From contig VTFK01000027.1 of assembly GCA_009617715.1 (NCBI GenBank), positions 744,001 through 808,000 on the forward strand: a stretch of 64,000 nucleotides of DNA. The letters are read 5' to 3'. Origin of the DNA: Plectrocnemia conspersa (lineage: Eukaryota; Arthropoda; Insecta; Trichoptera; Polycentropodidae). A program made the position numbers and the translations under genes. Positions 1-55,900 of this stretch are shown here, in pieces; position 1 is the stretch's first letter; each line of letters opens with the position of its first letter. The notes beneath the pieces were generated by a model. That model was given only the letters and a program-made list of their open reading frames with translations, did no database searches and had not been told where the DNA came from.

Positions 1-1755
1 CATGATTTTTTTACGAACTTAACGACCCTGTTTAAGTCATATTTAGAATAATATTTAAACAGTAGAGCATATCGTAAATAGATAATCAGAGACATCCATA
101 TTTTATGCTTTTTTCCGTCATCATTTAGCCATAAAGGCAAATTTTTGAAGAATGGAAGCTACAGAAATATTTTTGGGAAGAGTTTAGTCAAGAAGCGATA
201 ATTTTATGCTCTAATGAACATTATTTGTGAAAAAGTCTGAGAAAGATATCATTGAAAGAACTGGAATTCATAAAGATTAAAGAATATTTATTTCTAAAGT
301 AACCAAAGATATAGAACTTCAATGATAAATAAAAATGCAAAATAGTATTTAATTTTTAAATAGTGAAGTGACTTTTGATCCACTCAACCTAAATTAAAGG
401 CGAACTAACATGAGCAACTTACTTTATTATTGATAGTAACATAAAAAAAAACCAAATTGTATATTAGAAGACATTCAGGACCTTGGATGATAAATAAAAC
501 TGGATGAGACATTAAATTTAAATACTAAACAAGTATGAATTCAAGCACAAGAAATAAAGAAAATCTGCAGTAGAAAACAACACGTGCAACTAAAAAAACA
601 CATGATAGTTTTGTAGAAATTATGTTTATAAAAAAATTCACGGTACTTATATGCAGTTTATATGTATAAAATACTAATTACAGGATACCAAAGTCATACG
701 AAATTATATACAACCCTTCGCTATACGCGAGCTTCAACCGCCTGGAGGATTCTGAAAATATATCCTCCATCAAACAATATTGTCATACTCAAACACAAAA
801 CTAATACAAAGCAATACCTCGCACCCACCACATCAAACGAATATCAAGTATAAGAGATTACAATAAAACAACACTAAAATACAAATACAAAGACAGTACA
901 GCAAAATATATCAATCAAATCAAGTTTTATTTTATCCTAGCAAAGTTAAACTTTTTTGCGGCTTATTTTTCCAATTTCAAATTACCAAGAAATATATATT
1001 GTTAGAAAAGCCTTGTTACAGCTTTTAGAAGCCAAGTATATTTAAGCAATTTGTATGGAAATATATTATTTATATTCGAGCAATTTGTATGGAAAATGTT
1101 ATCTTGAGCTCCCTTTCTGTTTATTTTATATATGTATTTAACTTCAGATAATTATGTCGCATATGTATTTTCTTGAAAAAATATAATTAATAAAATAAAT
1201 AGACATAAATAAAACACAATATTTAGAGATAAAGAGTATTAAAAGTAAGCTTGCAGTAGAAGACCAGCAAGTGCAACTAAGGAAAATATCGATTTAATTC
1301 AAAGCAAAGCACATTGACAGATTTGCGAAGACACTTGAGCCAATTAGACACGTAAAAAATAAATTAACATATTTTTCATGCAATATGTTGTAAAAATACA
1401 GCTATGAAACATTGTACTATAATCCAAGGTGAATGGACGTAGAACGATGAATGAAAAGTCGAAGTTTAACACATGTAATATCAAGATTGTACACCGAACA
1501 ACTTGATAGAATTGTCTTAGGATCCGCTATAGAGAATACGGTAAACAAGAACGTATTAATTAAAAGATAAGCTGGTGTGGATACTATAGTTTAATAGTAG
1601 TAGATAATCAAATGTTTTACATCTAAATTAAGATTACAATTCAACGGTTTAATTCAATCACTAAATTTGATATTGCTGTCTTTATTATGAAATATATAAT
1701 TAAACTCTTTTCGCTTAAAACTTTGTAAATAAACGAAATATATATTCATGCAAAA

Positions 1756-2100
1756 ATGGTAAAACAAACTGAAAATGTGGGTCTGAAGCTCTTTTCCCGC
1801 GGGTCCGATGTTAAGTATTGCTGTAAAATTTACCGCGAAAATATCCAGTCTGCTGTGAATGAACGAAAAAGGAAAACATCTGAAAATCCTCTATTTATAC
1901 ACTTTGTATACATATTGGAATGCTGTATACCTATAGGAATAGTACCAACGAGAGACTTGAATGTTTGTTGTTTATTATATGCAGATGATGCGGTTGCGGC
2001 ACCTCTGGGCTTAATTAAATTACACATTATGATTGATACGTAAAACGAGAGTTGTAAATAAAACTATAGAGATATACTCTGTAGTAAATGGTAAAATATT
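1756..2100 (+). mobile_element. RTE-like LINE reverse transcriptase fragment
   Basis: A 95-codon open frame contains PTRDLNVCCLLYADDAVAA, the YADD active-site motif of reverse transcriptase in the form ELNVKCLLYADD typical of RTE-clade elements. Past the stop the same frame reads MIDT, stop, NESCK, resembling the following M-NxMNES-K segment. The upstream part of the ORF shows no clear RT motif. It is a short, dead fragment. Confidence 0.6.
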
Positions 2101-2715
2101 TAATTAACAACTGCACTCTTATAGTGTTATAAAACTACTTGATGGTATAATCTACTGGTCCTTTAATTAATATAAATAATCTAATAGCTTTCTATTCATT
2201 AGTTCTTTAAAACATTGTGTATGTTTACAAATAAAGACAGGCATGAATGAATAAAACCTTACTTCCATTTGACCTATATTGTCATTTCAGAATAGAGAGT
2301 GCGGACAAAAATATACACAGTAGATCGATATATCAAAGTAAATTTATGTCAAAGCGCTGTATTTATAAAAAAAATACATAGTTATTATGTGTGCACAAAT
2401 ATAAAATACACAGTTTATCAGGAAAAAAATAATAAATTGCGAATGAATTGTGTGTCAACTAAACTGCGGTTAAGGAAATTGAGTACGTTCTTATATTAAA
2501 ATCGTTTTGAGGATATGAAGTACGTGTGCTGAATACATCTATGATTTTGAGACCACTTTAAAATTATTGGTGTGACCTAATGTTAAATAAAGATATTTAT
2601 TATATTGTATATAAATTGTTTTAATAGCAATAGCACATTATATTTTTAAAGACACATTAAGATTTAATATTTTTTTTTTTTAAATATATTTAAAAAAAAT
2701 ATTTTTTGAATTAAA

Positions 2716-2965
2716 TTGAGACCATTGTGACCTAACATATTACCCCAATGCGTCACGATGGTCATACACTAGTAAATATAAAATTTACAATACAGGAAAG
2801 ATAAAAAAATAATATAGCTGACATTTAACAGATCAATGTGCAATGACAGCGTATTAAGGAGGTGAGTGGTGACAGCCATAGGCGAGACCTGACTCTAAAA
2901 ATCATCAAAAGAGGACGTGATCATGATTCTCAGAGATGTTCTGTGACCCAAAACTAAAATTTCTT
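2716..2965. repeat. dispersed repeat with 44-nt stem-loop, copy 1
   Basis: It shares two blocks with a copy near 48.5 kb: a 44-nt hairpin (2720-2763, arms GACCATTGTGAC and GTCACGATGGTC) and a block from 2,818 starting GCTGACATTTAACAGATCAA, followed by ATCAAAAGAGGACGTGATCA and a conserved ACCCAAAA. The spacing between blocks differs between the copies. The superfamily is not recognised; it could be the 3' end of a LINE or a non-autonomous element. Confidence 0.6.
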
Positions 2966-5759
2966 GATAATAGTATGATTGTTGACATCACCCTACACTA
3001 GTAGAATCCCCGAATCGAAATTCTAATTTTAATAACTTGAGAATTACCGAGCTAAATAATGCGAGCAATCGAGGTCCGGTATTTTTTTTTTAAAATATCC
3101 CATGACAAACTTTTAGAAGGCCTTTCCAAATTTGGTAGAGATTTTTCATCTGTGGTGAAAAACACGCTGGACGAGATCCATGCTATTGGTCAAATAAAAT
3201 TTACCGAAAGCGATTAAGACGTTAATTATTTCCAACAATTTACTAGGAGCTTTTATGCAATCGATTACTTTTTCATGAATAGGTGTGACTTTTGTGCATT
3301 TCCAAAAATCAGTAATGATGACGTCATGAAAATCAAATTAAAAATACGTTTTTGAGAAGCAGCTAGATTAACTTCGCAATAAAATAGAAGAAGGAAGCGA
3401 CTGTGCGAAAGGTGAAAAAGATTCCTAGAAAAAATTACGGAAATATTGCGCAAAACCATCAGCAATATTTTGTGAACCATCAAAGGTTATCACTTTCGGC
3501 ATCGACTGAGCTTTGATAACAACAATAATTTATCACATTAATAATTGTAAAATAAAAAAATGAGGATCAAGACAATGTAAAATATATTTACAGCTTTTAT
3601 TTGATTTTCTATTATATAAATAATTACATTAGCTTAAATTTTACATCTACAAGATAATACAAACGACTTCATACAATACAAACATGAATAGGCATACTAC
3701 TTTAAACCGCTATTGTTTTAAGTAATCTAATTTGCTAACATCTTTCATGTAATTTGTATAATTTAATCATCGTTTAATTTTAAAAAAAAAAAACATAATT
3801 TGGCGTAACATCAAACGTAAATCTCATTCACATACACATATATACTTTTCCGTATCAAGAGCAAACTCGACGTGCTCAGATTGCTTTTTTGGTCAATTAA
3901 TATACGCGAATGATGAAATTGGTCACGAGTTGCCACAGACAGATATCCTACTAAAGGCAATACGTAAAAAAACATACACGTGAATTTTATTCGTCGAAGC
4001 AACTATAGCATTTTATTGATACGCGAATTTGATAGATTGAATAATAATAGAACGAACACGTATAATACGTACAATGTATCTATCAATCAGTACAAAAATA
4101 TATTCATACTAATCTGCCGCTGAATAATGAAATCCAGTTAAGCCGATAAAGCCCTACAAATTTGTGGAATTAATATTAATTCATTTACCCCTAAATGCGA
4201 CGCAAACAAAGCGCAAATAAATTATTCATTTCGTATGAAATTATATTGATATCATTATGTGTTGAAATTATAAAAAAAAATACAAGGAATTAGGTCACAT
4301 ATATTTGTATTGACAATAAACACATTTATTCGATAAATCAATTGACGATGAAATACTCTCAGTAGTTTAATAATTCAATCCCCAATACCAAATATTTGTC
4401 ACAAGGAAAATTTATTCTCTTCACATGACGTTTTAGGGTTAATGTAGTCGTTTTATTGAAGTAAACAATTTTGCGATAGTATAATATTTCACATTTAAAT
4501 TTCAAGTGTATAAGCAATCTAATAGATCTAATCCAAGGTCAAGTATATATTATTCAAACCCTTTGTTTTCCTGATTGCGCACAACAAAAGCTGAAATTAT
4601 CTCACGAAGTCTTTCGAACCTCATAAATAACTCCATCCCGAAAAAGGTTACGCAACAACCTGAAAAGACGCTAATGATAAATTAATCATTCAAGGTGTTA
4701 AACTAGTTAGTAATAGGGGTTGTATCAAAACACCATTAGTAAACATTAAAAGTGTGAAGTTTACAAGAGCGATAGATTAAGTGAAGCGATACAGTGACTT
4801 CAGTCCTTATCCCTCCTTGTTTTGGGAAATAATTAGTGTACAGGTTTACTGCCAAGGCTTCACAGTTAATACTTTCTGCTTACAACGCCTTGGTTACTTC
4901 CTTTTTGGTTGACGGCTCGACACCGTTAAACGGCACGGCACGAATGCAATATAATTAATGAGGAAAGGGAGGTCTTATCAAAATACGATACGAAATTTAA
5001 TAATAGTAAAATATAAATTTATATCATATATTTAATTATTTAAAAAAATATTAAATGCCACCAATAAGAGTTACTTCATTGCCTTCTCACAATTTCCTTT
5101 ACTAATAAATTTTATTTTCATAATACATAATTATTTGAAGATAGCGCTAGATTAAAATTGTTACTGTTGATAATAAAAGGGCGCTATTTCAAAAAGCTCG
5201 CTCTGAGATAATCGCATTCAAAGTTTGCAGAAGATTACATCTTGATTAATATTTGCGTAAAATGATTAAAAACAATTACGAAATAAATATAATATATCTA
5301 TAATTACAATTATTTTAAACATGGATAATAAAACAAGTTTACTTCCCCTTTTTCCATCTAACGATCAAAATTTAAATACAAATTTAAAAGTCCAGTAATT
5401 TTTTTACTAATCTTTAAAATTCTGTTAACGTTTAAAATATTATTAAACTGTGTTTTTTGTGACAAAAATAATTAAAATATGTACTGTTCTAAATGTTAAA
5501 AAGATTCACCTTCTTAGCTACAAAATAGTCAAAAATCTAAACATGTTTAAAAAAATCTAAACGTCTATTAAATATATTGTTGGTGTAATTATCGTTGTAT
5601 TTATTTACATATATCTATGTGCTTCTAAATAAATTGGTAAACATAAATTGTAAAATTAATGAAGGAAACGTTACGCTTAACTTTATTGTTTGATACTTTT
5701 ATTTTTTTGAGGCATAGTATATAAATTTAATTACAGTACATAAATCGCCCGACAATTAA

Positions 5760-6275
5760 AACCTCATCACGCTATTACAATTCGTTTATAAGAGTCTTTA
5801 ATGACGACGAAAAAAAAATTGGCACTCACCCAAATCGTTACGTACCACTAGTTGAACACTGCTCTATTGTGCGAGCCGAAAAAATAATTATTTATTTAAC
5901 CATCCAATATCGCTCCGTACTATGGCCTTAATAATATAATAAAGCGTGGGAGAAAATATGCGTATAAAGAGGAGATCCAAGACACAAAAGCTTCGCATAA
6001 AATGCGTATAAATATTTACGATTTTTAATATGGCGTCTTAATGAAACGATAATCAGGATTTAATACGCGCGGCGTCCCGGATAGCACAAAGGATAGCTAT
6101 TAAAGAGGTTCGCTTGTTATGGACGAGCGAGAAAATAGTGGGGTTTTGTCATTTCTCAGACCGTTTCTGACAATTACTGTCAGGAATGTTTTTCCTTTTC
6201 GAACTCGAGCCGGAACAGAAGATATTATAGTCACGCGTGCGTGAATAGAGGATTGCGTCTGAATATCAACTAAAA
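5760..6275. other. less AT-rich intronic island, no coding potential
   Basis: The island contains several CG-rich words, including a GGCGTCCCGG segment near 6,072 and TCACGCGTGCG near 6,231, with stops in all frames. It is a candidate conserved noncoding or regulatory element, or old repeat; no motif decides between these. Confidence 0.3.
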
Positions 6276-9200
6276 GGACCGTGAATTGGGTGATATTTTT
6301 TTTTCAATGAAAAAATCGATTTTATTTTATGTCTTAAACATTCTAATAAATATGATTGTATTTTTGAGTCTGTATCATTATTGGGTTGGGTTAGGTTCCA
6401 TTTTCATCAGACGTGACACTGATTTTAAAGAGCGACACTTATTTATATTATCTGATTGTTGATAGTAAAAATTTCACATGTTATAATAAATTAATAAAAT
6501 GCTAAGGACATTCGAAAAGTAAAATATAATATAAAAGAGATGTGCTCTGATAATTTATATCACTTCAATTATGGGATCATATTTTTTTTCTCAAAATATT
6601 CAGTAAGTATAGATTCAAGATTAGTAAAACAGGATGCAATTTTTTTTATTGGGTTGACAACACTGTCATTTCTATTCAATTCACGTAATGTGACAAAGTT
6701 TAGCAGCGACGCTTTGCCTAAAATTTGTGTTAAAAATGCCTGTATGAATTATTATTTACGTAAAGTCATTCAGTGATCCGCCAAATTTTGCGAAAAAGAA
6801 GAAACTGCTGCTAAAATTGTGTACATTTTATAACAGAAAGAAGTTGTGTTTATGACTAAAAATAAAATTCTATGTCATCCCTGCTCTATATATTTTTTAA
6901 TGTTGTTCTGAACTTTGAAATATTATTTTTAATTATAACCATAAAATTAATATATAGAAAACTTCATGCGTTGGGTGTCGTAAAATATACTTTTATAAAG
7001 TTAAAACCAAAAAAAAATATTTTTATAATTTGTGCGGTTAATAATGACTGTATTTGAAAATTAATAAAGTGGTTTGTTTTAAGTATAAATCAATCAAAAA
7101 ATATTTTTTTAATGCATCAGTATTTTTTTTTTTAAGCCAGTTTGTTCTTAACCCGAGGTCCATTAATCTGTAAATAATTTTAGGTGGTTTGCGATTAGTA
7201 ATTTAAAAAACTTACTGTCTTGATTTCGACTAACTAATGCGAAAGAAAGTGAAAGAAAGTATTTGACAAAGATAGAGTTTTGTTTTAAAGAGGTTTTCGA
7301 TGCTTTCATCTGCCTAACAAAGGATTCCATATAGCAAAAAGGATCGAAAACTTTGCTTTAAGCAAATGATTTCTTGAAATACACTTTGATTTATGAAGTT
7401 TCTTACTTATTATTGTGTGATACTCACAAAAGCGGGTATATGATAATAAATCAAACAGATTTTGTTATCTCAAGGTTAATTTTCAGAATAAATAATATGC
7501 TTGGATGCCAATTATTTTAAGAAGCGGGACTTTTGGGGCGAAAATGGCAGGTGTACAAGGAAGTCATATACTTTTATTCAAATTTAAATTTACTTATATA
7601 ATTATTATTGTGAATATAAAAATATTACTGAGAATATCTGATTTGTTTTGCTTTTTTTATTCTAATATATAAAAACAATTTCATTAATAAAAAGCGTTTG
7701 AAGGCTCAAAATATTTTTATTGACTAATGTTTTTAAAAAACGTTTATGAAATATCTTGATTTAATAATTTATTTAAAAATAAATATACGATTTTATAAAT
7801 AATACGTAGCGTACAATAAAAATATGTAATAAAATATTTCCCATATGGGTACTTTATATTTTTTTTACTAAATAATGCCATCAATTGTATTTAGGCATTT
7901 ATATATAATATAAAATAAGGACCTCATGCGGCGTAAATTTTATTATCTTTATACGAGAATTCATTACGCCACTATTTATGTAATGTAGGATATAAATTAG
8001 GTTTATAAAATACCTAATGAAAATATCTTGAATTACTGCCAATAATAATAATGAAAATATAGTATTGATATTTTTTTATAATAAAACTTCGCCATAAAAC
8101 TTTTAAAAAAAAAATTTAAACAAGTTTATAAACATGTAAAAAATCATAGCATATTATGATTTTATTTAGGTATACCCGAAATTATTAAAATTGCACACGA
8201 TATTATTTTTAGATATGTAGTTACTTTATTTATAACATAAACGAATCGTTTCCGCTATGATGTGAAATATTATACCAGTTTTTAATCGTAGAAATATTGT
8301 GCTTACAGTGTTTTTTTGCGAAAAGAGAAACTACCGCAAAAATTCATTGCCAAATTGTGGCCAAATAAATAAAAGCGCGGATGTGTTATATAAAATATTG
8401 TTTTATTTTGCTATGATTGATTAAGTATCAAGATATGTTATTTATTAGAAATAGTTTTTAATCTGTTTTTAAACTCATTTCATAATAAAATTTTAAAACA
8501 AATAATGAATATTTTAAAGATAGTATAAATTGAATGCCTTAGAAATATTTCCTAAAATTATTTTTTGCTTTCTGTGATACAAAGTTATGCAACTAAAGTA
8601 TTTTAAAGCTATTACATTTGAAAACATTGATTGATCAAATGCCTTTAAAATATTTCTAAAATTCGTTTCTTTGCTTTCTAAATCCTTTATGCATGAAAAA
8701 ACTGTTAAGCTAAATGTAATACATAATTTCAAACACAAATTTATTTGCCATTACAAACAAAGGGAAATGCCCGTATGCGGCATACAATCAACACACAATA
8801 GTAGCATAAAAGGTCCCTGCAAATAAATAATAAACGACGAACGTTTGAAAAGGTAAAGTATTCTAAAAATAATCCACGTAATGTAATATTTAAATACATA
8901 TATATATAAAAAAAAATCGTTAATACAAATTCAACGACAGTACGTGCAAGTGATATCGGGTTTAACGATCTCATCAATTAGGCGTTACAGGTGATGGTTT
9001 TACATAAATTACGCGTACATAGTGTCTATATAATATAATTATATTACATTAAATATAGAGAATGGGGGTGAGTTAACTGTAATATGAATTTAATGCGTGG
9101 CATAATCAATGGAGCGACTTCGTTCTTAGGCAAATAGAACCTTTTGGCGGTTGCCCAAAGAAAAACTCTATAATATTAAATATCAACAGGTTCAAGATCG

Positions 9201-9574
9201 ACGAGGCGTAACAACATTCAGAAGGGAACTTTTTATAACCAATTTAACAATGGTATTTTTTTTAATAATGTTTATTAAAACAATGAGATAAAATTGTGAT
9301 AACACAGCACACGACAAAGCTATTTTAATTTCTAAATTAATAATATGCATAAAGACAAAAAGACAAACTATTTTTAATAGTGGTTATCTGATAATGCTTG
9401 TTTATTTATATATTTGGTCAGCTTATTCAAATAATATTATGAAGATATTTTTAGTCATCTACTATCTAAAAATATCATTCTAAATAAAAAACTCAATGCG
9501 TAGCTTCTATCCAAGATATATACGTTCTTCGCATACTCTCGCGTGTGTATATTTTATTACATTGATAATGTTAG

Positions 9575-9965
9575 CCGCCCTGTAACTGAGCATACAGTAA
9601 ATATAACTGGGACTCCCTTCGCATCCCTTGGACGCTCGGCGCCGGGAGAGCAGCGCGAGAGAAGCTACGGCTACGGCCGTAGACTCCACGGCGTAGACCC
9701 TTTTTGTGTCCCCTACGAGGCCACGAGGGTTTATTGATTTTCAAAACGCCTCTTGCCCCACTACCCTCGTATTGTGTACGGCTCTGGCCTCATCCCCGCG
9801 CATAGCTTCATCCCTATCGCGGGGCGGTTCGCTCACTTACGCCAGATGCTGCCAAGCATCCGGACGCGGTCCTCGTCCGGGGAATTATTTAAAAGTGGAC
9901 CGCAAGGGCCCCGAGACTCGGACTGTAGCGCGCGATACGTCTTTGTTAAGAACACAATAAATCTT
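9575..9965. repeat. GC-rich inserted sequence of unknown family
   Basis: About 390 bp of GC-rich sequence with abrupt borders in AT-rich DNA. It includes GGCGCCGGGAGAGCAGCGCG near 9,640, an imperfect CTACGGCTACGGCCGTAG palindrome near 9,665, and CCCCGCG / CGCGGGG arms near 9,795-9,825. It ends close to AATAAATC. Overlapping ORFs of 84 and 123 codons cross it but look like products of GC content and have no recognisable domain. A retroposed LINE 3' part or SINE-like element is plausible. Confidence 0.45.
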
Positions 9966-10479
9966 TTGGGTCGTTCAAAAAAAATACATATAACGAGAAG
10001 GGAACTTAATTATACCCTAGAAAAAGACACAGTGTTTATATTGAATTACAATTTAACGCTGGTTTATCAAAGCATTAAAGAGAAAAATTATTTACAAATG
10101 TTTTATTTTGATATTTATCGTTGATGAATATTGTATATAAAGAAAAATTAATAACTTACTTAAAGACCAGTTTCGGTCTATCAAATCCTATTATCAACTT
10201 TGAATAATGGGATGCGATAGCTTTGAAATCAATACTTTCAATGGGCTAACAATTTGTCTTCAAAGCAAATACAAAGTTTTGTGCTTCATATCGAATATCT
10301 ATATTGAAAATAAAAACATAATAGTTTTATTCAATTTATTGATGATAAAGCATGAATTTTCTATTGCTATATTATTTGCTGTTCGATATCCATTTATTAT
10401 TTGTATATTTTTAACAAAATGTTTCTAATTAAGATTTTAACAGTTAAACCTGTTTTGTCCGTTGACACATGAGTACGTC

Positions 10480-10962
10480 TTTTATAATAAGCGTATTTGT
10501 GCCCATCTAATATTAAAAAAAAATAAGCATGGCAGAATTTGTACCAAGTAAACAATTTATAGAAAGTTACCTACTACGGCCAGTAAAAAAATTTTAAGTA
10601 ATAAGTGATTCATTAGAGATCCATTTATGTCAAAAAAGGCTTTAAAAATTTTCAACGAAAATTTGGATATAAAGAATAGTCCTGGATGTGAAGAACTGTG
10701 TAAATGCAGGGTGCAGAAATAAAAGCAAGTCCCACTGAAACGATACTTTAACTGGCTGAAATACCTAATCTGTCCGATTCAAAAGTGCATAGATACATCA
10801 AGAAGATTGGAAGGCTTGGAGATAAGGCGAATGGGTTCCATACGAATTTCGTGAAAAAAACAAGGAGGCGCGTATTCGCATATCCCAAGAACTTCGTTTT
10901 AAAGCTGGTCTTGTATGACAACAATTGTCGTAGAATAAAATGGTTATCCAAAAGTCAAGTTA
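10480..10962 (+). pseudogene. mariner copy A, 5' half (split by a LINE)
   Basis: From ATG at 10,529 the sequence reads MAEFVPSKQFIE, a mariner-type transposase start, then breaks up by frameshifts and stops. It aligns with the second copy at 37.1-37.65 kb through SDSKVH-like and VPYEFREKNK segments (second copy: SDSTVHKYIKKI and VPHELN). It stops at the TCAAGTTA junction near 10,960 and resumes near 13,180. Confidence 0.7.
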
Positions 10963-13177
10963 ATTTAAGTTACTTGTTCTATTCTCATATTTACAATTTG
11001 TTATTAGCTACAATTTTATGAAAAATAATGATATAAAATACTACTTTGGTCGCTACAATTTAGGAAAAAAACTTAAAAAACATATTACAATTTAACAAAA
11101 AAAAAAAATATAGGAAAATATAATTATAAATTAGGTGATAATTTGGGTACATTTCACTAAAGGTCTGAAACCATTGATATGTTGTCTTTAGTCTCTAAAG
11201 CAAAATGTGCTTTTTTTTAAATTTAAGATTGTATTTATCGTGATCACCGATACACAAGATTAATGGGTTAGTGTGACAAACAAACTCCTTGATTACTCCA
11301 GATTAGAGTCTCCAATTCGAGTAATTGAGTACTCGATACTCGAGTATTTTTGTCTATTTTTCAAGTACTTGATAATCGAGTATTTTGAAAATTACTCGAA
11401 AAATACTCGAAATTAAAAAATTTTGAAATATTTCAGAAACAAAAATAACTTTAACTCGGTCCGGTAAAGGTTAACGTCTTGCTTTTATTTGGCGTTTATG
11501 CCCGAAGTCCCGAGCTAAGCGGTTACTATCAGGTATAAATAGTTGCATAGTTCCGGTCGTCGGCTATGTTAGTGGGTACGACGGAGAAATTTCTTTTGTG
11601 TTTTCTGTTCGACAGTCCCGACTTATCTAATTTATGGCAATGAACAATATGAAATATCAACAAAAAATTTTTTTAGATTTTATGACTATGCAGTTGTAGC
11701 GTAAAGTGTTGTAAATTGTTTATACTGATCCCTCAGCTTAAAATATAAATCAAAACAATTGTGTGTTTTAAAGGCATTTAAAGTACAGTCAGTTCTTTGC
11801 GAACCGTTTAACTCTTTTCACCCAAATACATCTTCGAAGGATATAGATTTAAATTCTTCGCATTAATCAGAAGGGGTAGAATATTGTATATTGTTAAGAA
11901 AAAAAATCTATTCAAGAAGAATTACAAAATGTTATTTTGTCAATAGTCGAAGGAAATAAGAGAAAAGCAGAGAAGGGAATGAAAGAAGAGAACATAAAAA
12001 GAGAGTTCAAAAAATCTTATATCTATAAAAAGCGAACAGATATAAATTTTATCCAACGCGTAAATGACAATAAGACCAACATCAACAGCAACGGAAAGGG
12101 TTTTTCCATAACGGGAATAATAAAACCAAAGGTTAGCAGTAATATTAAATTCGAGACACTTTTGCATTATTGTTTTTAAAAAGTATGCTCGTGAAGTTAA
12201 AATAATTGTAAAAACTAACATACTAAGTATTTTATTTATTTATTTATATGTGCACGAATTTGAATAATAGCTATTTTGGTACATTTGGTAAATACTCGAA
12301 AGTACTCGAGTACTCGAGTATTTTAAAATTTTAATATTCGATACTCGAGTAGTTGATGGTTCGAGTAATTGGAGACTCTACTCCAGATAGAATTTTACGC
12401 GGTATCGAGTGTTCATTATTTAGTGAAACAACATAGCAGTTATATGCGTATTAGTAAATAGTAAGGGGTTTTGTATTTGTATATTTTATGAATCAAACCA
12501 TTAATCCATACTTTTTCTATAAAAAATTTTAAATGACCCTCTTTTTCATAATAAAATCAGCGCGTACATGCTCTGACAACTGATTTTTGCGGAATCCAAA
12601 CTGTGTGTTAATAATTTTATGCCCCAAAGATTTTTTAAATGGATACTATTTTTTTAAATATTTTTTTTAATAAACTGATGGGGAATAATTAATCGGAATT
12701 ATAGGATCCTTATCGGGGTTTTTTATCAGATGAATTTTAGTGGTTTTCCAAATACTTGGGAAATACTCAAAAGATAAACAAACGTTAAAGATTGTTAAGT
12801 AATAAATGTAAATTCCTGGATCGTATTTAAGTAACGCGTAAATAATCTGTCAGTTCCAAGACGCTTTTTATTTTTCAAGTTTATATTTTAAAATTGACAG
12901 TGAGCTTATTTTGTGAATTGAATATTTTTTATCAAGGTTGCTAATATTTTTCTTATCGATTTAAAATTTGTAGTAAGTTTGTTCGATACAGAAAAGTCTA
13001 ACACATATACCTTGCCCTGATTCGTATCAGTTTTGAAATTATTTTGAACCGATTTAGATACTTTCATTGCAAAAATTTAACTTTTTGTCACATTTTTTTT
13101 TTATTTTAATTAATTTATTAATTAAAATTAAAATCTTTAGCTTGTTCAATTACAATTAAGTAACACAACCTATTTCG
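10963..13177 (-). mobile_element. Jockey-like LINE fragment inserted in mariner copy A
   Basis: On the minus strand, reverse transcriptase pieces are readable. Around 12,870-12,680 they include YFPSIWKTTKIHLIKNPDKD, equivalent to FP..WK.A.I.PI.KPGKD. Next is QFGFRKNQLSEH (12,600-12,560), then NEHSIPRKILSGV just right of the hAT insertion, continuing as SGV on its other side. Past that the element is short, so it is 3'-deleted. The mariner words flanking it (AAGTCAAGTTA left, AAGCCCAAGTTA right) look like an imperfect target-site duplication. Confidence 0.62.
11304..12380. mobile_element. non-autonomous hAT element, 1,077 bp, with 8-bp TSD
   Basis: The ends are TAGAGTCTCCAATT and its exact reverse complement, a 14-bp perfect terminal inverted repeat. 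They are flanked by the identical 8-mer CTCCAGAT (11296-11303 and 12381-12388), the hallmark length for hAT target duplication. Both subterminal regions are packed with palindromic ACTCGAGTA words. The interior has a TATAAATAG near 11,535 and no transposase; an 80-codon Lys-rich ORF at 11,937 and its antisense have no recognised domain. The element interrupts the LINE RT frame at SGV. Confidence 0.88.
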
Positions 13178-13605
13178 AAGCCCAAGTTATCTTGTGTGCA
13201 TGGTAGGACTGCTAAAGGATTATGCATTATGAAACTTTTAAAGCCTGGCCAAGTAATGACAGAAAGCTTATTTTGTGATCAGCTGGACGGTTATGCATAA
13301 AGAAGTAAAAAAGACCTGCATTTATCAAGAGAAGTCTAATAGTTCTACAGCACGACAATATGCGTCCCAAATTGACTCTTAAAATATCGAGCAACTTGGC
13401 TGGAAGGTTTTATCTTATCTAGACCTTGCTCCTTTCGGCTACCATTTTTTTGACCGAATCAACACAAAATGCAGAAAATATAAAAAAAAGGCTATAGGAA
13501 TATTTTGAATCTAAGCCTCTAACATTTTATGATATCAAAATTAAAAAAATAATGTTATTTTTTGCTTCATTAAAAAAAGACATTCATTTCAGGATGACTT
13601 AATAC
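13178..13605 (+). pseudogene. mariner copy A, 3' half
   Basis: Broken frames read HDNMRPKLTLK, then LAGRFYLI and a TLLLSATIF stretch equivalent to the LAPSDYHLF region after the second catalytic Asp of mariner transposases, then ENIKKRL, FESKPLTFYDIKIKKI and a C-terminal end near 13,605. It is parallel to the end of copy B (38,000-38,080). It is the continuation of the 10,480-10,962 half. Confidence 0.7.
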
Positions 13606-15289
13606 TTATATAATTCAACCTAATATATATTTTGCCTAAATATAATAAAATCTAACAAACATGTTTTTCGCCATTTTTACAAGACAATACCATTGATTAT
13701 TGTCATATTATGAATATGTATGAAAGCACAATTGTTTATTCATATAGATTGAACGTGATTTGAATTCAAGAAATATATTAGGTCTAGTTTTGTAACCGTT
13801 ACATCAAATATTTATCACCACCATAGCAAAGGATCCAAATGCGTGAGCATTAATGTATTATATAATATCATAAAGTTCTGAATTTCGCATTGAATACTAA
13901 TCGGTTTATATATAATAAAATATACCTTTATAAAGTCGATAGCGTTTTGTAATAAATTTCAAAGCCTCGGTTAACAAACGCTTCTTTAACTTGCATTAAT
14001 ATATCAAAGACACTTTTCATCGTATAATAGCTAATTTATTTATTAACTTTTTTTAATAAATCAACGCTGTAAATATAAATGCGCTCGCTATAATTTTTCG
14101 CCCCTTTATGGTACATAAAGTAATTTTTGTATACGCGGGGTAAAACTCCATGTTTCGTATAAGTACGAATGTAAAAATACGCGAGGGGTCATTGTGTCAT
14201 ATTTTAATTTTCGCCAAAAAAACATACGATACACATACGAATTAGTGGGCCGACATATTCAGATAGTCATTTTAAAATGAGTACACAGTCAAACATAATT
14301 TATCTGCAAACGTGAATAATTAAATTACTGAAGGTTAAATAAAATATCAGTTTAAATTATTGACTATGCATTATTTTTTATTTACATTCATATAAAAAAA
14401 AATGAATTTAATATCATAAGCTTAAGTTTTTAATACTCGTGTAACATTTACAACAAAATGTAATGAAGTAAACTACAGATAGTTGAAATAAATTTCAACA
14501 AGATTTACATTATTATTAGTCAAGATTTTAATAAGGCACACGATTTTACAAATATAACTTTTAAAGACACTTTTTCTATAATAACATCTACTTTATAAGT
14601 TAAAACTATATGTGTAGTTAATATAACATGGGGTGTGCCTAAGGGCGATACGCATGGTTAAGCTTATTGCTTCATATATAGAGCACACTTTTAATGGCGT
14701 TTCTTAAAATTAAATAATAGCCGTATATCTAAAAAATTATGGAATTTGTTCATATAACATTTACCATGAAAAATATTTTGTTCTAAATTATCGTTAGATT
14801 TACAAATATATAAATATAGAAAGCACATATGGACTAAACGCAAATAGATTGCCTAGTAGGTAAAAAAAAAACAGTTTATCAATAACCAATTAAGTGCTCG
14901 TATATGAATCCATATTAAATCTGAAATTAATTCGATAAGCATGTATATAGAGACTTTAGGATAAAATCATAAAAACTACAATATAAAAACCCACATGAAA
15001 TATGAAATAATAATACACAACTATAGATAAAAAGAACCCAAATATATTGGCAAACAAATTATCTAAGATCCAAAGCACAAAACGCCTCGAGATATAGGTT
15101 ATACTTATAAAATATAGATAGCAAATCGCTGAGAAGCGATTGACCCATACAAAAAAGAGAAAAAATCAAAGTTAAATAAATATATATTTAGCAATGTATA
15201 TTTACATATTTATTTTTTGTAGCAATATTTGTACAAAATATTAGATAATAGCCGCTTATTAAATTAGAAACTAATTCGCCATTCGATTT

Positions 15290-15780
15290 TAATCGAATCA
15301 TACAAAGTTTTCACCATTGGCAAAGCATGTGAAACACCTGTTGCCGTCTGGCAAGAATGCCAAGAAGTGGCAAATCACCATAAAAAGCGCACTAACATTC
15401 AATCTTCGAGTCAAATTAGCCATCGTTGGCGCGGCCCCTGTAGTAAATTAAATTTTCTCTAGGCCCAATAAATTTTCATAATGTCTTAATCTGTGCGATC
15501 GATTTTTGGCTAAAACCTCAAGCTCGTTTAGACGAGGAGATTAGATATGAACGTACACAGGGGAGCCACGCTTCAAATATTGATCAGAGCAAATTGGCGC
15601 GGACAGAACAATCCCTAACGTTCAATTTGCAATATACCTGATCCTCGAATTTAGAGTAATCCATTAAATCACCGTACGTTGTATATTACTAAAATTAATA
15701 CACGACCCTTAAATTGTTAATATAAATATCGCGATGTGATACGATTGTACAATATAAATCAATAAACAAAAACATTAACG
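15290..15780. other. less AT-rich intronic island upstream of the splice element
   Basis: The sequence has moderate GC with words such as GGCGCGGCCCC near 15,430 and CTCGTTTAGACGAGGAG near 15,521. It carries stops in all frames. It lies just 3' (in gene direction) of the candidate recursive splice site and could hold splicing or transcriptional control sequence; this is positional inference. Confidence 0.3.
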
Positions 15781-15790
15781 TAAAACTTAC

Positions 15791-15844
15791 GAAAAGAAGA
15801 TCAATTCAACTCATCGATATAAAATATGTAGAAGTCTGACTCAC
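15791..15844 (-). promoter_or_regulatory. candidate recursive splice site with 54-nt RS-exon (or poison exon)
   Basis: On the minus strand a T-rich tract reads into TTCTTGCAG directly followed by GTGAGT at the 15,845/15,844 junction, so a strong acceptor abuts a strong donor. A second donor, GTAAGT, starts at 15,790, which defines a 54-nt exon. Spliced in phase 0 (the phase of both upstream exons), it runs GTG AGT CAG and meets TGA at codon 13, so its inclusion would truncate UNC-13. This matches recursive splicing ratchet points with a downstream RS-exon, known from long introns of flies and vertebrates. A regulated poison exon is the main alternative. Confidence 0.55.
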
Positions 15845-16724
15845 CTGCAAGAAAAAAATACAAAATATTAATATTATATAATCTGTAAACTTTAAGTTTT
15901 AAGACGTGTGTTATAAGGCTTAGTAAATGCTAAATTAACGCGGGCTAAATTTCGCATATAAAAATGTTTTTAGCGTGTCACGTAACGGTGTTAATTACTT
16001 TTTACAAAGAGCGTTTCAAAGTAAAGCCTCCGACGAGTAAGCGGCGCGCAACCATCGGTCTCGCTAATTGGATAAAATTTATATAATTAAAGTATCATGG
16101 GATGTTTTAAGAATATGTTTGAGTGAAAAAACTATGTATCAAGGGACGTACTGAATTGAAAATTGCATAAAAACATACATGTTTAAAAAGTACCTACTTT
16201 ATTTAAAAAATATGTTTATGTTTTTTCAGCACGATATGGCAATTATGTAAATGATATTGCTTGGCAATTCAAAAACCATGAGTTTAAATCTCACATAAAG
16301 CATGGTTTTTTTATTTATTTCTGTCGTATCTTGCAGAATAGTAGTCAATATTTAAATCTGGTCCATGTATATTGCATACATTTTTATACTAATTAGGTGT
16401 CAAATCACATGTCGCTATTTACAGACAGACAGACACATGTTACCTATCCCTATCTACTATGGCGACCGAAGAGTATGTAGGAACATACCATTTGTCCTAT
16501 CTATTGATAGATAGGATTTTTTATTTTAATAACACTACAAGAGTTTTTTAAATTAAAATAGTACGATATATATGTAGTATTAAACAATGATTTAAAATAT
16601 ATGATTAGTGTTTTTAATCTCGTTTTGATTCCACAAAACTAATAGTATTTTAATATTGATAGATTACATATAATGTATATAGAAACAAAGTATATATTTA
16701 TATAATTTTTAGACATTTTTACTA

Positions 16725-26249: not shown

Positions 26250-26305
26250 ATTTTTACCTAACAAGAATTAAGCATTTTGATTTTTTACCTAAAAAGAATT
26301 AAGTA
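26250..26305. repeat. short tandem duplication with AG/GTAAAA words on the minus strand
   Basis: The unit TTTTACCTAAMAAGAATTAAG occurs twice, about 32 nt apart. On the minus strand each copy reads TTCTTNTTAG followed by GTAAAA, a weak acceptor-donor fusion. The polypyrimidine tract is short and the donor weak. Confidence 0.45.
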
Positions 26306-29089: not shown

Positions 29090-31690
29090 CACACTCAATC
29101 TAGAGTTCCATAAGACCACCCCGGTTTTATGATAGAGATATATGCTATTATTTTGTATTCCAATGATAAGCCTGAATTTGGTCCTGTAAGCCAATACAGC
29201 TTGCAAAGTTGAAGTTTAAGAAGTTTCCTTCTGTTCCAAATATGAGTTTTCTGTCGAGATAAATTTCAAGACAAGTTTCTTTGTTCAGCGTAAATTTTAT
29301 AAAGATTAATTTAGTTTTATCAATTAGAGAGCCAAGTTTGGACTAATTTTAATATATGATCTTGCAAGCTCATCGATTTTACTTTTGGGTCAGTATCATA
29401 AGCTATTATTGTAGTGTCGTTGGCAAATGTAGCGATTATTTTTGAGTTAGTCTGAGAAAAATCTATCGTGTATAAGAAATACAGCTTTGAAACAGTATTG
29501 TGTTTACTTATGCGATCTTGATTTATGACTGGGTTATTAAAAAGATATTGTATGAAAATAGTCCCTTAATTATATATTATAGTCTAGGGTGCCACACTTT
29601 GGCAAAAACTCGGATTATATTTAAGAATACGGCTGAGATATATTTTATATTTTTAAAGTCTTTATAAATATATATTTCTCTATTATAGAATGTTATTTTT
29701 TAAACCCATATTAATAATTGGGTAAGAGATAAAGTTATTCTATTACCGGTTTAAAAAATCATAGTATTTTTTTATATTATTTTGCATAACTAATGCACGA
29801 GGCAATATCGTTTGGTTATTTTCCTGGTTTCAGTAAAATTACACTTTGCGAAAATTTTCATTGAGTTGAAAAGTAGCTTATCCTTATAACTGAGTTGAAT
29901 ATAATGGTTAAATATCTGATTTATTTTAAATATTTTATTTTTATTAATTTACTTCGATCTATAGCTAATTTTTAATAACTAAATATTTTAATTTAGTGTC
30001 TAGTATTTCCCAAATTTATTTAACTACATTCACGTCTAATTCATCAATACCGGTTCTTTTTTTTAATTGAAATATTTTGTTATGAGTTTATTCTAATGAT
30101 ACTGAAAAAAATTTACTAAATTTTATATTTAATGCTTCATTATTATATTGTAATAAATTATTAAACTTAGATATTGAAATCACAATCTCTTCTATACTTT
30201 CAATGTAATATGTATTAATTTTTTCTGCTATTATATGAAGATCTTTATATATATTTCCATCAATCTCTATATTTATTATGTTTCTCTGAGTTGGGCTAAT
30301 TATTTTTTTTATCATTTTCCACGTCTTATTTGGATCATCTTTTATTTCATATATCGACTTTTCATACCATTTATTTTTAGCTATTCTTAATGCTTTGACT
30401 GCCATATTTCTATATTGTTGGCATGTTTTTTATTTTTCATTTAATACTTTATATTCTACTCTTTTTGCTTTTATTATTAAAAATCTCTTTTCTTTAAAGC
30501 ATTTTTTACATCATCATTAAACCATGGTTTTGGGTTATAACGATATTCCGCTTTAAAATTAAATACTTTTTATTTTACAATATTAATATTTATGTTATCT
30601 ACATTCTAATAACATTTTTGTAATTCTAGTCTTGATTTGTTAAAAAAAAATTTCAATTATATCAATATTATTTTTTTAACCCTTATATTATATTTTTCTA
30701 TATAAATATATACAATAAAATAATAAGTTATTCTTAGAGTTGATTTTACATTACAATAAATTCTTTTGCAATTGGTGAACACTAAATCTATTAATGTGCT
30801 CGATCTATTATTTGTCCTTGTATTTTCTTTGACACATTGTCTTAAACCAAATATATTTGTTCATTTTTCTATTTTTAATAAATCCTCACATTAGTTTCAA
30901 TTAAAGTTCCAATCTCCAATTAAAACAGTATCCAAAATTTGATCAGAACTCCATTCTGTAATATTATTTATGAATTCTATGAATAAGTTTGGATCACTGT
31001 TTGGAGATCTATATGCTATACATAATAATATGTTTTTTTTCAAAGAATATTTTTACTGTGCTGGAATAGTATGTCTTATCTATATTATTTTTAAATATTG
31101 TATTATAATTTATATATTTTCTAATATACAATACAACACCTTCTGTATGTCTGGAATTAGAATCATATTTAATCATACTATAATTGTCAATTTATAATTC
31201 ATACTTTTCAATATCATTTGTGATATGTGTTTCTGTTAATCATAAAAAAAGCGGATATTTCTTTTCAAAAGTAATTTTATCTCTTCTTTATGTGGTAAAT
31301 ATCTTTGTGTATTAATCATTATCCCAGATACAGATTCGCGTTTCTCATGTGAAATTAATTTATTTGGTTGCTTTGTATTGTATTGTATTTTTTATATTAA
31401 TTTTGCACATATCTTTTATATAACAATTTTGATCCATTAAATTATGTTCAACATTTAAATTTAAGTTTTTATTTGCTCTGCAACAATTTACACAATTATC
31501 TTTTTAATCGCATTGTACTACCTACTAAATGCTCTTCTGATCCACATTAAATACATTTTTTTCTGTTTTTACATTCACTAGCTTTATGATTATATCCATA
31601 GCAATTATAACAACGTTTTAAAACAATGTCTTTTTGGCATTTATGTATATTACTTATTTTATTGATAATTTAAAAAAATGGATTATCTAA
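29090..31690 (-). mobile_element. Jockey-clade LINE relic (gag knuckles, endonuclease, RT)
   Basis: Reading on the minus strand: near 31,600, RCYNCYGYNHKASEC is a CX2CX4HX4C zinc knuckle, followed by a second CGSEEHLVGS knuckle-like stretch. Near 31,310, HKEEIKLLLKRNIRFF matches the start of the endonuclease. Near 31,010-30,900, YRSPNSDPNLFIEFI and LIGDWNFN match the endonuclease core. An intact 105-codon frame (30,405-30,088) with KNKWYEKSIYEIKDDPNKTW is the linker before RT. ILKPGK near 29,840, FANDTTIIAYDT near 29,420 (YADD position) and LCKLYWLTGPNSGLSLEYK near 29,190 follow. The last is typical of Jockey. Stops and frameshifts make it dead. Confidence 0.82.
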
Positions 31691-34520: not shown

Positions 34521-35297
34521 TCAAATTGCCGCACAATAATTATTTATTAATAAATCTAATTCACTTAAATAAAAAAATAATTAACCCTAACACAAAAAAC
34601 TTCATTATAAGTCAGATTTATAATGAATAAATATTCGTCTGATCTAACACCATCAGATTATCATAATTTTTAGCGTTTTTCAAAATCACGTTAATTAAAA
34701 GCGATTTAATATATACATGATAGTAAAAAGTTCGAAGAGAGCTTGATTTATTAATTAGTTTAAAACCGAATGAATTCTATCGCCATGAAATCTAAAATTT
34801 AAATACAAGATTGAAAAAACTTATTTTTTTGTTTTATTTTAAATATATATATTTTAAATTATACATTATATATGAATTGACTTAATTTAATATTATGCAC
34901 TCTACTATTATAAAACACAACAATATTTCTATGCATCATCATTAATTTAGTATAGATTTGAGCATTGCGTTATGCATTGTAAATAAATTATATTTTTAAT
35001 CAATAATCTTTTAAAATAATATAGAACTTTAAATCACGAAATTTTGATATTATTTTTTTTTATAATTTCCCAGGAAATCTTAAAATGTTAACGAATTTTT
35101 TCCACTTGAATTTATAACGATTTTTTTATTATTTAGTTAATATCTTGAATCATTTTTATTAACCAATATTATACTTTCATCTAATTTTTCAGAGACACCT
35201 ATGTTCAAGTTTGTAAACTAAAATTTTTTTTCTTTGTTTGAATTTCAGCTGAAAATGGTTTGAAACATAGCTAAATTATTTTATTATTATAAAATAC

Positions 35298-35975
35298 CTT
35301 TCTCTTTGGAGGTGTAGGTGGTGGCCTCACAGCTTTTAGCAAATGAGACAACCTTTGTGTTCTTTGAGCTGCTGTCATCCCAGAAGTGTTGATCATGGGT
35401 CTCGGTTTTAATATTATAGGTGGCGTTGGTGGCGATGGTGGCGGAGTAGGACTCCCTGGCGATACTCTATGTGTGACTGTCGATAATGGAACAGTTTTAG
35501 CGACCAAAGTCTCGCTGCGTACAGACCAGGAGGAGCCTCCGAACTTTTTCAGATTCATCAAGTCTCCGATGCTGTCTTGGGTGCTGGAAGTTCTCCCGAT
35601 TAAGTTTCTGTTCAATGCAGGACTATGTGGGACCGATCCGTATCCTTTCAACTGTAACGTTGATTGTGCACTGCCTAGATGACTTTGGTTAGTAGTAGAT
35701 CGTACTAAATCGAGCGCTGCTTTGTTGTTCGCTTGAAATTTATCCAATTCTGACATACTCGACCCTCTTCTCATTCTTGCTCTCTGTCCGGTGGGAGGCT
35801 CAGGTTCCACTTCTTCGGACTTTTTTCTTGCCACCTTTTTATGAACAAGGCCTGACAGGTGATGTCGAGCCTTTCGGGACTCGCAACGTGTCATCGAAGA
35901 GGATTTCACAGCAAATAAACCAGCTTTTAGTGGGAACAATAGAGCCCATTCCGTCGTTTTGTCTTGGTCTTCCAT
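35298..35975 (-). CDS. unc-13: unc-13 short isoform: alternative first coding exon
   Basis: The open frame starts at ATG (35975; product MEDQDKTTEWALLFPLKAG) with an in-frame TAG 15 nt upstream. It runs 226 codons to GTATTT in phase 0, exactly the phase with which the calmodulin exon of the long form ends. The protein is basic at first (RKARHHLSGLVHKKVARKK), then Ser/Leu-rich, then proline-rich (SPTPPPSPPTPP, RPPPTPPKRK). A helix-prone AAQRTQRLSHLLKAVR precedes the end. The lack of an acceptor in front and the in-frame stop argue for a first exon under its own promoter. Flies have Unc13A and Unc13B with different N-termini on a shared core. Attribution to unc-13 rather than an unrelated gene is inference from strand and phase. 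An antisense ORF across the exon is a shadow. Confidence 0.72.
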
Positions 35976-52779: not shown

Positions 52780-52916
52780 GTTTATCTTTCTGAAGGCCCA
52801 TAACCAGCGCTCTCTAGGATTCACAGGACATCGGTCGGCTTCTTCGTCTTCGAATGATACACTCTTCGCCTTTCCCTCAGAACCTGAACCCATAATACTT
52901 CCAGTTTCATGTTCAC
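52780..52916 (-). CDS. unc-13: unc-13 exon 14 of window (calmodulin-binding segment)
   Basis: This 137-nt exon encodes GEHETGSIMGSGSEGKAKS, then an acidic VSFEDEEADRCP segment, then NPRERWLWAFRKIN. The WLWAFRKI core matches the calmodulin-binding helix of Munc13-1 (WLRAFNKV), with the anchor Trp in place. Calmodulin binding there couples residual calcium to vesicle priming and short-term plasticity. The exon ends in phase 0 at GTGAGT, and the remaining part of the helix should be on the next exon, which is not in the window. Confidence 0.88.
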
Positions 52917-55900
52917 CTATTAGATAACACATATTCACATATATCTGATGATTTATTGGCTTTTGTTCTACGTTTTATACCGCAATCTACAACAACATCT
53001 AACTGTTCGGAAAATAATAACCGTTTTATTTTTTTATTTAAAATCTAGTCTACTCCTATATTCCATATTTTTAATAAAAAAATGTGTCCCTAAATAAAGC
53101 GAAATACTCAAATAAATTCTAGCTTGAAAGATAAATCGATCGACTTGTTGAACCTTTGATATTAAGCAATTTAATGTATAAATAAAACACACTTGATTAA
53201 AGAAATAGTATAAGAATTAATTATAAAAGTAATGCACGAATTGTTTGATAACGTATTGCTTAATTAAAAGGTCTGGTTTATTATAGGTAAATATCTAATA
53301 TCTTAAATAAACTGCTAAGTTATTTTCATAACGATAAAATCACGATTTTAATATTATATGCTTTAGTTTTATAGATATCTTTCTGCAATTAAATATATTT
53401 TTAATTTTTTATTATATACAATATATAGATCATTTTGATTGCATTAAAAAAACCGTTTCAATTTTTACAATATAAATATGATTTTTTAATAAAAAAAGTA
53501 AAATATTCGGAATTAAATTGGTTTGAAAATCTTTGATATTGTAATGATGTGTTAAATCTACTTTTGCAGTTAATTTTTTTGCTAACACGTGAATTTTTTT
53601 TTTATGGTGGTCTTTTTTACGTTTAATTTGTAACAAGCAGCTTTTTTAAGCTTGCTTGTTATTTCTTTACAAATATTAATTTACAAGCAAATAATTTAAG
53701 CTGTATGGGATTGATTAAAATGAAATTGATTGTATCAAAATCGGCTAAAACCAAAAATCTGTGCATAATACCAAAAGACCTAATATAGCAGTATATTTAA
53801 TTCACTATTACAATACCAAAGCTAATAATATTTGTGAAAAAAACTAAGCACATTTTCATGTAGAGATTTTACCACAAAGGAAATATAATCACAATCAAGA
53901 ACCTAAATCTTTAGTATGAACCTGTATATGTTAAAATCAAGCATTAAACAATATATTAGTATATTTTTATAAGTCAATGCAGATAAATAAAATTAAATTT
54001 AAATATATAATATATGATTATATAAAAAACTAATGATGAAGCTAAAATTTTCACTCAATTTTACATTATAATAACCTAGTTATTTAATTATTTTAGAAAA
54101 ATAAATGATATATTTCAGGTTAATATTAACTTTCAATACAATATTCGTGCATCACCTTTATAGATTTTAATAAAATAGTAAATTAGCATGTTTTATAAAA
54201 TAAAATAAAATCTCTACATAAATATGTTCGCATAAAGTAATAATTTTATCACATAGGTTCAATCTCACTTCATAAGCTTCCGATACAAGTTTCGAATTTG
54301 CACTTCAAAAGCTCAACGAATTAGGTAGTGAAACTTTAAACCCGTCTATACACCCGCCTGCCTCAATGCTAAATGATTACCATCTTGTGGTAAGTCTGAT
54401 TAGTTTTTAACCCTCCTAAACTTGAAAATGACGTAAGATCCGAGATACTATATGGCTTTAAAGTTTTTATTAGATTGACCCATATTCAACTAGCTTTATT
54501 TTAATTAATACGATCGTTATTTTCCAAACTGTCTACATTCTAAAACAAGCACTAATAATATCATCACATTATGTACTTCTTCTTCAAATTTTTACCTCTG
54601 TGATCTTGCGGAGCTCTCGTGTCTGGCGGTGGACTTCCAGTCGGCTCTGGTAAGAGATCTTGTAAGCTCGTTTGTGCTGCCGCTCGAGCATCGCCTTCTA
54701 TGGAATCTCTGTATGGGACGTCCATAGAGGTTTTCCTAGATCCAGGTGGCGATGGCTTTGGTCTGTACGGTTCGACTAGCGAATTTTCCAAACCTCTGCC
54801 TCTGCCTCGCGGTTCTTCTTCGTCGATAGAGCCAGGCATCGGTTCTAGCCTATCGACGTGAATCACTGACACTGGTGAATCTTGACTGTGCCCTTTACTA
54901 TAGTCTGAACTGACACCGTTAAGTTGATCTAGATCGTCTGGTGCGTAACTATCTAACGAATTTTGATTTTGTAAATAACCCCTATCATTAACCGATTCTT
55001 GATCTCTAAGGTAGTCCCTACCGGACGGGTCCTCCTCTGGTATACTATAATCTAACGAGTCTTGCTTAACTAGGTCTCTGTCCATGGAGACATTTTGATT
55101 ATTATACATATAGTCATCGTTCGCTTCGCTCACTGAAACTTCTTGTTTATGCACATAGTTGTTCATCGTAGGCACTGAGTCAACTGTCGTTTGAGGATAA
55201 TGGTAAGTATCACTTTCTGTCACTGACGTCTGTCGCAACACTTGTCTGGTGATGGATGTCTGAGTGGTGAAGGGTGACTGGGAAGATGTTGTCATCGGAG
55301 TTGGCGCTGGTTGTTGAGCCGGAAGTGGCTGTGGTTGAGTTGGTTGTACTTTTGGCGCTGCTCCGGACAGAAAACTACCTAGTTTTGCAGCACCGCTTTT
55401 GAGCAGGCCAAAAGTTTGGGCTGCCGCCGCCGCCGCTACTATCGGAGCGCTGCCAATGCCTGAAAGTCAACATTTGATGTATAAGAGAAGCTTTGCAAAT
55501 ATATCAAAATTAATACCCAAATTGGTTGTTGTTGTTGATGATGCTGGTTGTGATGTTGGAATACTTTTTGGTACATCATATGCGTACGGGCTTGATGTTA
55601 CAGGAACATGTTGAGAAGAAGCTTCGGGAGGTATCCATTGTGCTGTACTATACGGAATATAACTACAAAAATACATTTAATTAAAATCATGCCATTGATT
55701 AAAATATATAAATTTAATTAAAAATAATGGCATATTCATAAAAATTGATATTTATAAAATAAAGTAAATCTTATTGAGTAGATATTGCATTATTTATTAT
55801 ATTTATTAAATCTTTCGTTGTAAGCCCAATGCGTTATAACAGGCAAATCTGTACCAACTAAGTAAGTCAATCAGACATAATGAATACCTACAAAAAATTA

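What the first reader, a model, noticed from the sequence alone, without database searches (positions are those of the whole stretch)
15785..15870. Acceptor fused to donor with a downstream 54-nt exon: recursive splice site or poison exon in a >35-kb unc-13 intron
On the minus strand TTTTTTTCTTGCAG is followed at once by GTGAGT, and GTAAGT follows 54 nt later. Ratchet points in long insect neuronal introns have this fused layout, and RS-exons add the second donor. The 54-nt exon in phase 0 carries an in-frame TGA, so inclusion would truncate UNC-13. It sits about 19.5 kb downstream of the short-isoform donor. I saw no other site of this quality in the window. If real, it is a way to control levels of a key synaptic priming protein.
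Basis: partly seen in the sequence, partly recalled or inferred. Interest (0 to 1): 0.75.

Follow-up and report, generated by a model that had tools for sequence, protein, structure and literature searches.

The report
Likely ratchet splice point in unc-13
Deep inside a very long intron of an insect synapse gene (unc-13) lies a sequence that looks like a stepping stone for cutting out huge introns in stages; it resembles a kind of site known from fruit flies, but nothing here shows that it is used.

Summary
On the minus strand TTTTTTTCTTGCAG|GTGAGT joins at 15845/15844, and GTAAGT follows 54 nt later. The acceptor scores best in the window, and the donor is the best U1 match of 1687 GTs in the sense intron. 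One equal site arose in 13,450 simulated introns. The exon ending at 35298 matches the N-terminus of an annotated bee unc-13 isoform, and no later unc-13 exon was detected in the window, so the intron appears to exceed 35.2 kb. The longer isoform (donor 52779) stays unproven.

Best reading: a zero-nucleotide ratchet point with a cryptic 54-nt RS-exon, as in Drosophila. Its donor pairs with U1 better (-12.2 kcal/mol) than the RS-exon donor (-5.7). A stop in the exon is expected about 72% of the time by chance, so it is weak evidence for a regulated poison exon. No DNA of relatives and no RNA data could be reached; the own-genome search did not complete (9 attempts). New member of a known kind.

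The parts
15845..15858 (-). ratchet-point acceptor TTTTTTTCTTGCAG
   Evidence: highest acceptor score on either strand of the window, 0.962 against 0.952 for the next
15839..15844 (-). ratchet-point donor GTGAGT, fused to the acceptor
   Evidence: with CAG in front the best U1 duplex (-12.2 kcal/mol) of 1687 GTs in the sense intron, next -11.5 at 5829
15867..15871 (-). branch-point candidate TTAAT, branch A at 15868 (-24)
   Evidence: match to yTnAy only, inferred
15847..15882 (-). AG-free stretch upstream of the acceptor (previous AG at -40/-39)
15791..15844 (-). 54-nt candidate RS-exon
   Evidence: no transcript evidence
15806..15808 (-). TGA, in frame if the exon is joined in phase 0
   Evidence: all three phases hit a stop within the exon
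15785..15790 (-). RS-exon donor GTAAGT (context TTC|GTAAGTTT)
   Evidence: U1 duplex -5.7 kcal/mol, rank 67 of 1687 GTs with ties counted
35298..35975 (-). coding part of the unc-13 short-isoform first exon (226 codons)
   Evidence: 43.9% identity, E 2e-32 to residues 1-183 of unc-13 homolog B-like isoform X4 of Megalopta genalis
35292..35297 (-). short-isoform donor AAG|GTATTT (phase 0, weak)
   Evidence: three of four close relatives (P0002-P0004) share the frame up to R-K-V and then differ; P0001 ends V-F like the window
52780..52916 (-). candidate upstream (long-isoform) exon ending NPRERWLWAFRKIN, donor AAC|GTGAGT
   Evidence: resemblance to the calmodulin-binding helix of Munc13 is recalled, not tested; two searches found nothing to support it

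Best explanation
The site is an intronic ratchet point (zero-nucleotide recursive splice site). Inferred steps: during transcription of unc-13 the 54-nt segment is recognised as an exon through its strong acceptor and the downstream GTAAGT. The upstream donor (35297) is spliced to the acceptor, which removes the first 19.45 kb as one lariat. GTGAGT now follows the exon directly and rebuilds a donor: AAG|GTGAGT pairs with U1 better (-10.7 kcal/mol) than the exon's own AAG|GTATTT (-5.7) and than the competing TTC|GTAAGT (-5.7). The rebuilt donor then wins, and the RS-exon leaves with the remaining intron (at least 15.8 kb), so the mRNA carries no trace. Shown: the sequence, its rarity, the host gene of the short exon, the duplex energies. 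Not shown: any splicing.
For: Fused AG|GT with the best acceptor and best donor of the intron; 1 equal site in 13,450 simulated introns; sense orientation in an unc-13 intron that appears to exceed 35.2 kb; branch candidate at -24 and AG-free zone; RP donor stronger than RS-exon donor. Fly knowledge read here: 63-70% of introns over 40 kb carry a recursive site (PMC6110457), recursive acceptors are stronger than ordinary ones, cryptic RS-exons are about 50 nt, generally with a weaker donor than the RP (PMC8605326).
Against: No conservation test was possible and no RNA data are at hand. The species is unknown, and the papers seen document recursive splicing in flies and vertebrates. The segments (19.45 kb and at least 15.8 kb) are longer than the typical 9-15 kb of flies. 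A short variable exon could have been missed by the bee-protein search, which matched only residues 1-183 convincingly. An equal site can arise by chance in a large genome.
Confidence: 0.72

Rival explanations
1. Regulated poison (RS-)exon: the 54-nt exon is included in some cells or in one isoform, brings in the TGA and sends unc-13 mRNA to nonsense-mediated decay. It can hold together with the best explanation.
For: Stop in all three phases; usable second donor GTAAGT; if the 52780 exon is really unc-13, its rebuilt donor AAC|GTGAGT (-5.8) only equals the RS-exon donor (-5.7). In fly reporters 4 of 8 cryptic RS-exons showed some inclusion, and 7 of 7 expressed RS-exons had the stronger donor at the RP (PMC8605326), so a stronger RP donor does not exclude inclusion.
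Against: For the confirmed short isoform the rebuilt donor is far stronger. Intronic fly ratchet points are almost never tied to expressed exons. A stop in 18 codons is expected about 72% of the time here. No transcript or conservation evidence.
Confidence: 0.12
2. Chance splice-like sequence, or a decoy, without a role in splicing.
For: No conservation or RNA evidence; a scan of many windows picks out its best sites; 1 equal site arose in 474.7 Mb of simulated sequence.
Against: Very low chance rate in this one intron; best acceptor and best donor coincide; second donor at the expected distance (2.7%); right strand of a very long neuronal intron.
Confidence: 0.15
3. The splice sites belong to something else on the minus strand, such as a transposable element or a nested transcript.
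For: GC is raised on both sides of the site (about 15300-15700 and 15900-16100), as old inserts may show.
Against: No second copy of the surrounding 901 bases in the window, only short matches of E 0.014 or worse; no Pfam match at E 0.1 in the three minus-strand frames of 1-15000 (15001-35297 not scanned this way); no Rfam or tRNA match in the window.
Confidence: 0.05

Closest known systems
Drosophila intronic ratchet points with cryptic RS-exons (e.g. kuz, Bx)
   Same: Fused strong acceptor and donor in a very long intron, ~50-nt exon behind it, RP donor stronger than RS-exon donor (PMC8605326, sections 4, 6, 8, 11 seen).
   Different: Conservation and splicing intermediates are shown there and not here; segments here are longer than the fly 9-15 kb.
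Ubx m1/m2 expressed RS-exons (51 nt)
   Same: Length and fused layout (PMC8605326 introduction).
   Different: m1 and m2 are conserved over all 51 nt and included in a subset of mRNAs; the exon here has stops in all phases.
Human UNC13A cryptic exon repressed by TDP-43
   Same: A cryptic exon in the same gene family that leads to NMD (start of abstract in a search listing, PMC8891020).
   Different: No homology is claimed; no UG repeat of three or more units within about 350 nt here.

Membership tests
zero-nucleotide ratchet point | 3' splice site directly fused to a 5' splice site around AG|GT | tested here: met
zero-nucleotide ratchet point | acceptor stronger than ordinary acceptors | tested here: met
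   best acceptor score in the window on either strand, with recalled matrices
zero-nucleotide ratchet point | sense orientation in a very long intron | tested here: met
   unc-13 exon at 35975-35298; no later exon detected in the window, best other match E 0.44
zero-nucleotide ratchet point | RS-exon of about 50 nt with a weaker donor downstream | tested here: met
   54 nt; U1 duplex -5.7 against -12.2 kcal/mol
zero-nucleotide ratchet point | intron divided into 9-15 kb segments, single sites near the midpoint | tested here: inconclusive
   first segment 19.45 kb, second at least 15.8 kb; intron end lies outside the window
zero-nucleotide ratchet point | strong conservation of the fused motif | not tested
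   no DNA of relatives could be reached; one exact-pattern scan of viral contigs found 0 and says nothing on this
zero-nucleotide ratchet point | exon-RP junction reads, lariats, saw-tooth coverage | not testable with these tools
   no RNA data available
poison exon | inclusion brings in a premature stop | tested here: met
   stop in all three phases; expected about 72% of the time in one phase by chance
poison exon | exon seen in (NMD-inhibited) mRNA | not testable with these tools
   no RNA data available

The most novel reading that the evidence does not exclude
Isoform-coded poison switch: both unc-13 isoforms splice to the same ratchet point, but the last three bases of the upstream exon decide the outcome. 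The short first exon (AAG) rebuilds a strong donor and skips the RS-exon. The long-isoform exon (AAC) rebuilds a donor no better than the RS-exon's, so part of the long-isoform mRNA takes up the stop and is destroyed. One site would then set the ratio of the two unc-13 isoforms.
Probability: 0.07. Interest if true: 0.7.

Novelty: new member of a known kind. Interest (0 to 1): 0.42.

Why it matters
In the papers seen here recursive splicing is documented in flies and vertebrates; the searches for other insects gave no clear case. A clear ratchet point in the intron of a core synaptic priming gene of another insect would extend the mechanism and give a clean test of how the end of the upstream exon sets the choice between a rebuilt donor and an RS-exon donor.

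Tried and rejected
Looked for further unc-13 exons downstream in the window: none detected (tblastn of the bee protein P0125, next best match E 0.44, printed list cut at 6000 characters; Pfam on the three minus-strand frames of 1-15000 with stops as X). Looked for a second ratchet point: next best in the intron 0.869 at 26288, at the level of the simulated mean maximum of about 0.86. No Rfam or tRNA match in the window, no second copy of the surrounding 901 bases in the window, no UG repeats of three or more units nearby. The short first exon itself has no Pfam or solved-structure match. The long isoform could not be tied to unc-13: a 300-residue upstream exon region found no protein with E <= 0.001 among 3894 candidates, and the 45-residue exon end found only a chance match of E 7.1. 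Literature: 'unc-13' with 'recursive splic' gave 1 paper, which mentions them apart (passages); with Lepidoptera 1 (not opened); with Neuroptera 0; the six-term insect search needed only two terms, so it says little. A bee paper (PMC8553928, passages) mentions recursive splicing only to rule it out for one microexon. The fly catalogue of Duff 2015 is not held.

Full report
What is there. On the minus strand TTTTTTTCTTGCAG is followed at once by GTGAGT (junction 15845/15844), and GTAAGT begins at 15790, 54 nt after the first donor. That is weak evidence for a poison exon: the three minus-strand frames of 1-15000 hold 322 of 5000, 324 of 4999 and 371 of 4999 stop codons, so 18 codons carry at least one stop about 72% of the time (my arithmetic).

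Is it more than chance? A pattern written to fit the site occurs once in the window and in 0 of 100 shuffles (post hoc, of little weight). With weight matrices typed from general knowledge the site scores 0.968, the best of 142 AG|GT on the minus and 130 on the plus strand; the next best in the 35.3-kb sense intron is 0.869. The antisense, reversed and complemented intron reach 0.848, 0.837 and 0.908. The acceptor is the best in the window on either strand (0.962, next 0.952), and the donor with CAG in front has the best U1 duplex energy of 1687 GTs in the sense intron (-12.2 kcal/mol, next -11.5). The two ranks are not independent, because CAG counts for both. Simulated introns of the same length gave an equal or better site in 0 of 450 (orders 1-3), 0 of 4000 (order 3) and 1 of 9000 (orders 1, 3, 5; the hit under order 1): 1 in 474.7 Mb. 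The models were trained on the intron with the site left in. A GTRAGT 20-100 nt downstream is found at 2.7% of intron positions. In a whole insect genome a few such sites may arise by chance (inference).

Which gene? The open frame 35975-35298 matches proteins of 148-312 aa (177 with E <= 0.001, 120 listed; those listed with an organism are insects, named hypothetical or uncharacterized) and the N-terminus of unc-13 homolog B-like isoform X4 of the bee Megalopta genalis, 1492 aa, with C2, MUN and C1 domains precomputed (2 proteins found, 43.9% identity, E 2e-32). No other part of the bee protein matched the window better than E 0.44, so later exons seem to lie beyond position 1 and the intron to exceed 35.2 kb; a short variable exon could have been missed. 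The donor at 35298 is supported by P0002-P0004, which share the frame up to R-K-V and then differ; P0001 (96% identical) ends V-F like the window. These four come from an unnamed source. It recalls the calmodulin-binding helix of Munc13 (from memory), but a solved-structure search and a homology search with an upstream exon region gave no support. Species and order are not known.

How it most likely works. Fly ratchet points are fused AG|GT sites with very strong acceptors; 63% of fly introns over 40 kb carry a high-confidence one and a further 7% a medium-confidence one (PMC6110457: section 5 parts 1-2 of 3, section 6 and passages seen). In flies such sites come with a cryptic exon of about 50 nt; the site is first recognised as an exon, then the rebuilt donor generally outcompetes the exon's own (PMC8605326: sections 4, 6, 8, 11 seen). 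The present site fits: branch candidate TTAAT with A at -24, no AG between -38 and -3, RP donor -12.2 against -5.7 kcal/mol for the RS-exon donor. Joined to the short first exon, the rebuilt donor AAG|GTGAGT (-10.7) is better than that exon's own AAG|GTATTT (-5.7), so the first step would replace a weak donor by a strong one. The energies are plain duplex folds of 11-base stretches with unmodified U1.

Poison exon? Intronic fly ratchet points are almost never tied to expressed exons. Against my reading: in fly reporters 4 of 8 cryptic RS-exons showed some inclusion, and 7 of 7 expressed RS-exons had the stronger donor at the RP, so donor strength alone does not decide. A more interesting possibility is that an AAC-ending upstream exon (52780) rebuilds a donor of only -5.8, on a par with the RS-exon donor, which would favour inclusion in the long isoform. 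This rests on an unproven exon and on energies alone.

What could not be done. The own-genome search was sent nine times and never answered, so copy number and genome-wide rarity are open. No DNA of related insects could be reached, so conservation, the strongest sequence test, is open. The fly catalogue of Duff 2015 is not held, and the site tables of PMC6110457 are supplements that were not opened, so whether fly unc-13 has a ratchet point is not known from these calls. Full-text searches found no paper linking unc-13 and recursive splicing (passages). Also seen: outline of PMC13105047, a find without hits in PMC10156609, passages of PMC13149111 and PMC8553928.

Verdict. A real and statistically outstanding site whose anatomy matches a known kind. 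Confidence that it is a working ratchet point 0.72; that it acts as a regulated poison exon 0.12 (the two can hold together). Ordinary in kind, good as an example, untested in function.

Noticed in passing
30088-30429 (-): 113-aa open frame reading like a piece of a retrotransposon enzyme (impression from the letters; Pfam found nothing at E 0.1).
   Followed up: partly
54564-55466, 56273-57040, 59526-59849 (-): Long low-complexity open frames upstream of the candidate long-isoform exon, perhaps more exons of the same gene; no Pfam match at E 1, and a search with the first of them found no protein.
   Followed up: partly
35298-35975 (-): The short-isoform first exon occurs in many insect data sets as an unnamed protein of about 200 aa, while of 2 longer proteins found one cluster (37 members) is annotated as unc-13: this isoform may be poorly annotated.
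   Followed up: partly
15300-15700 and 15900-16100: GC rises to about 0.37-0.42 on both sides of the AT-rich splice site in a 28% GC window; cause unknown.
   Followed up: no
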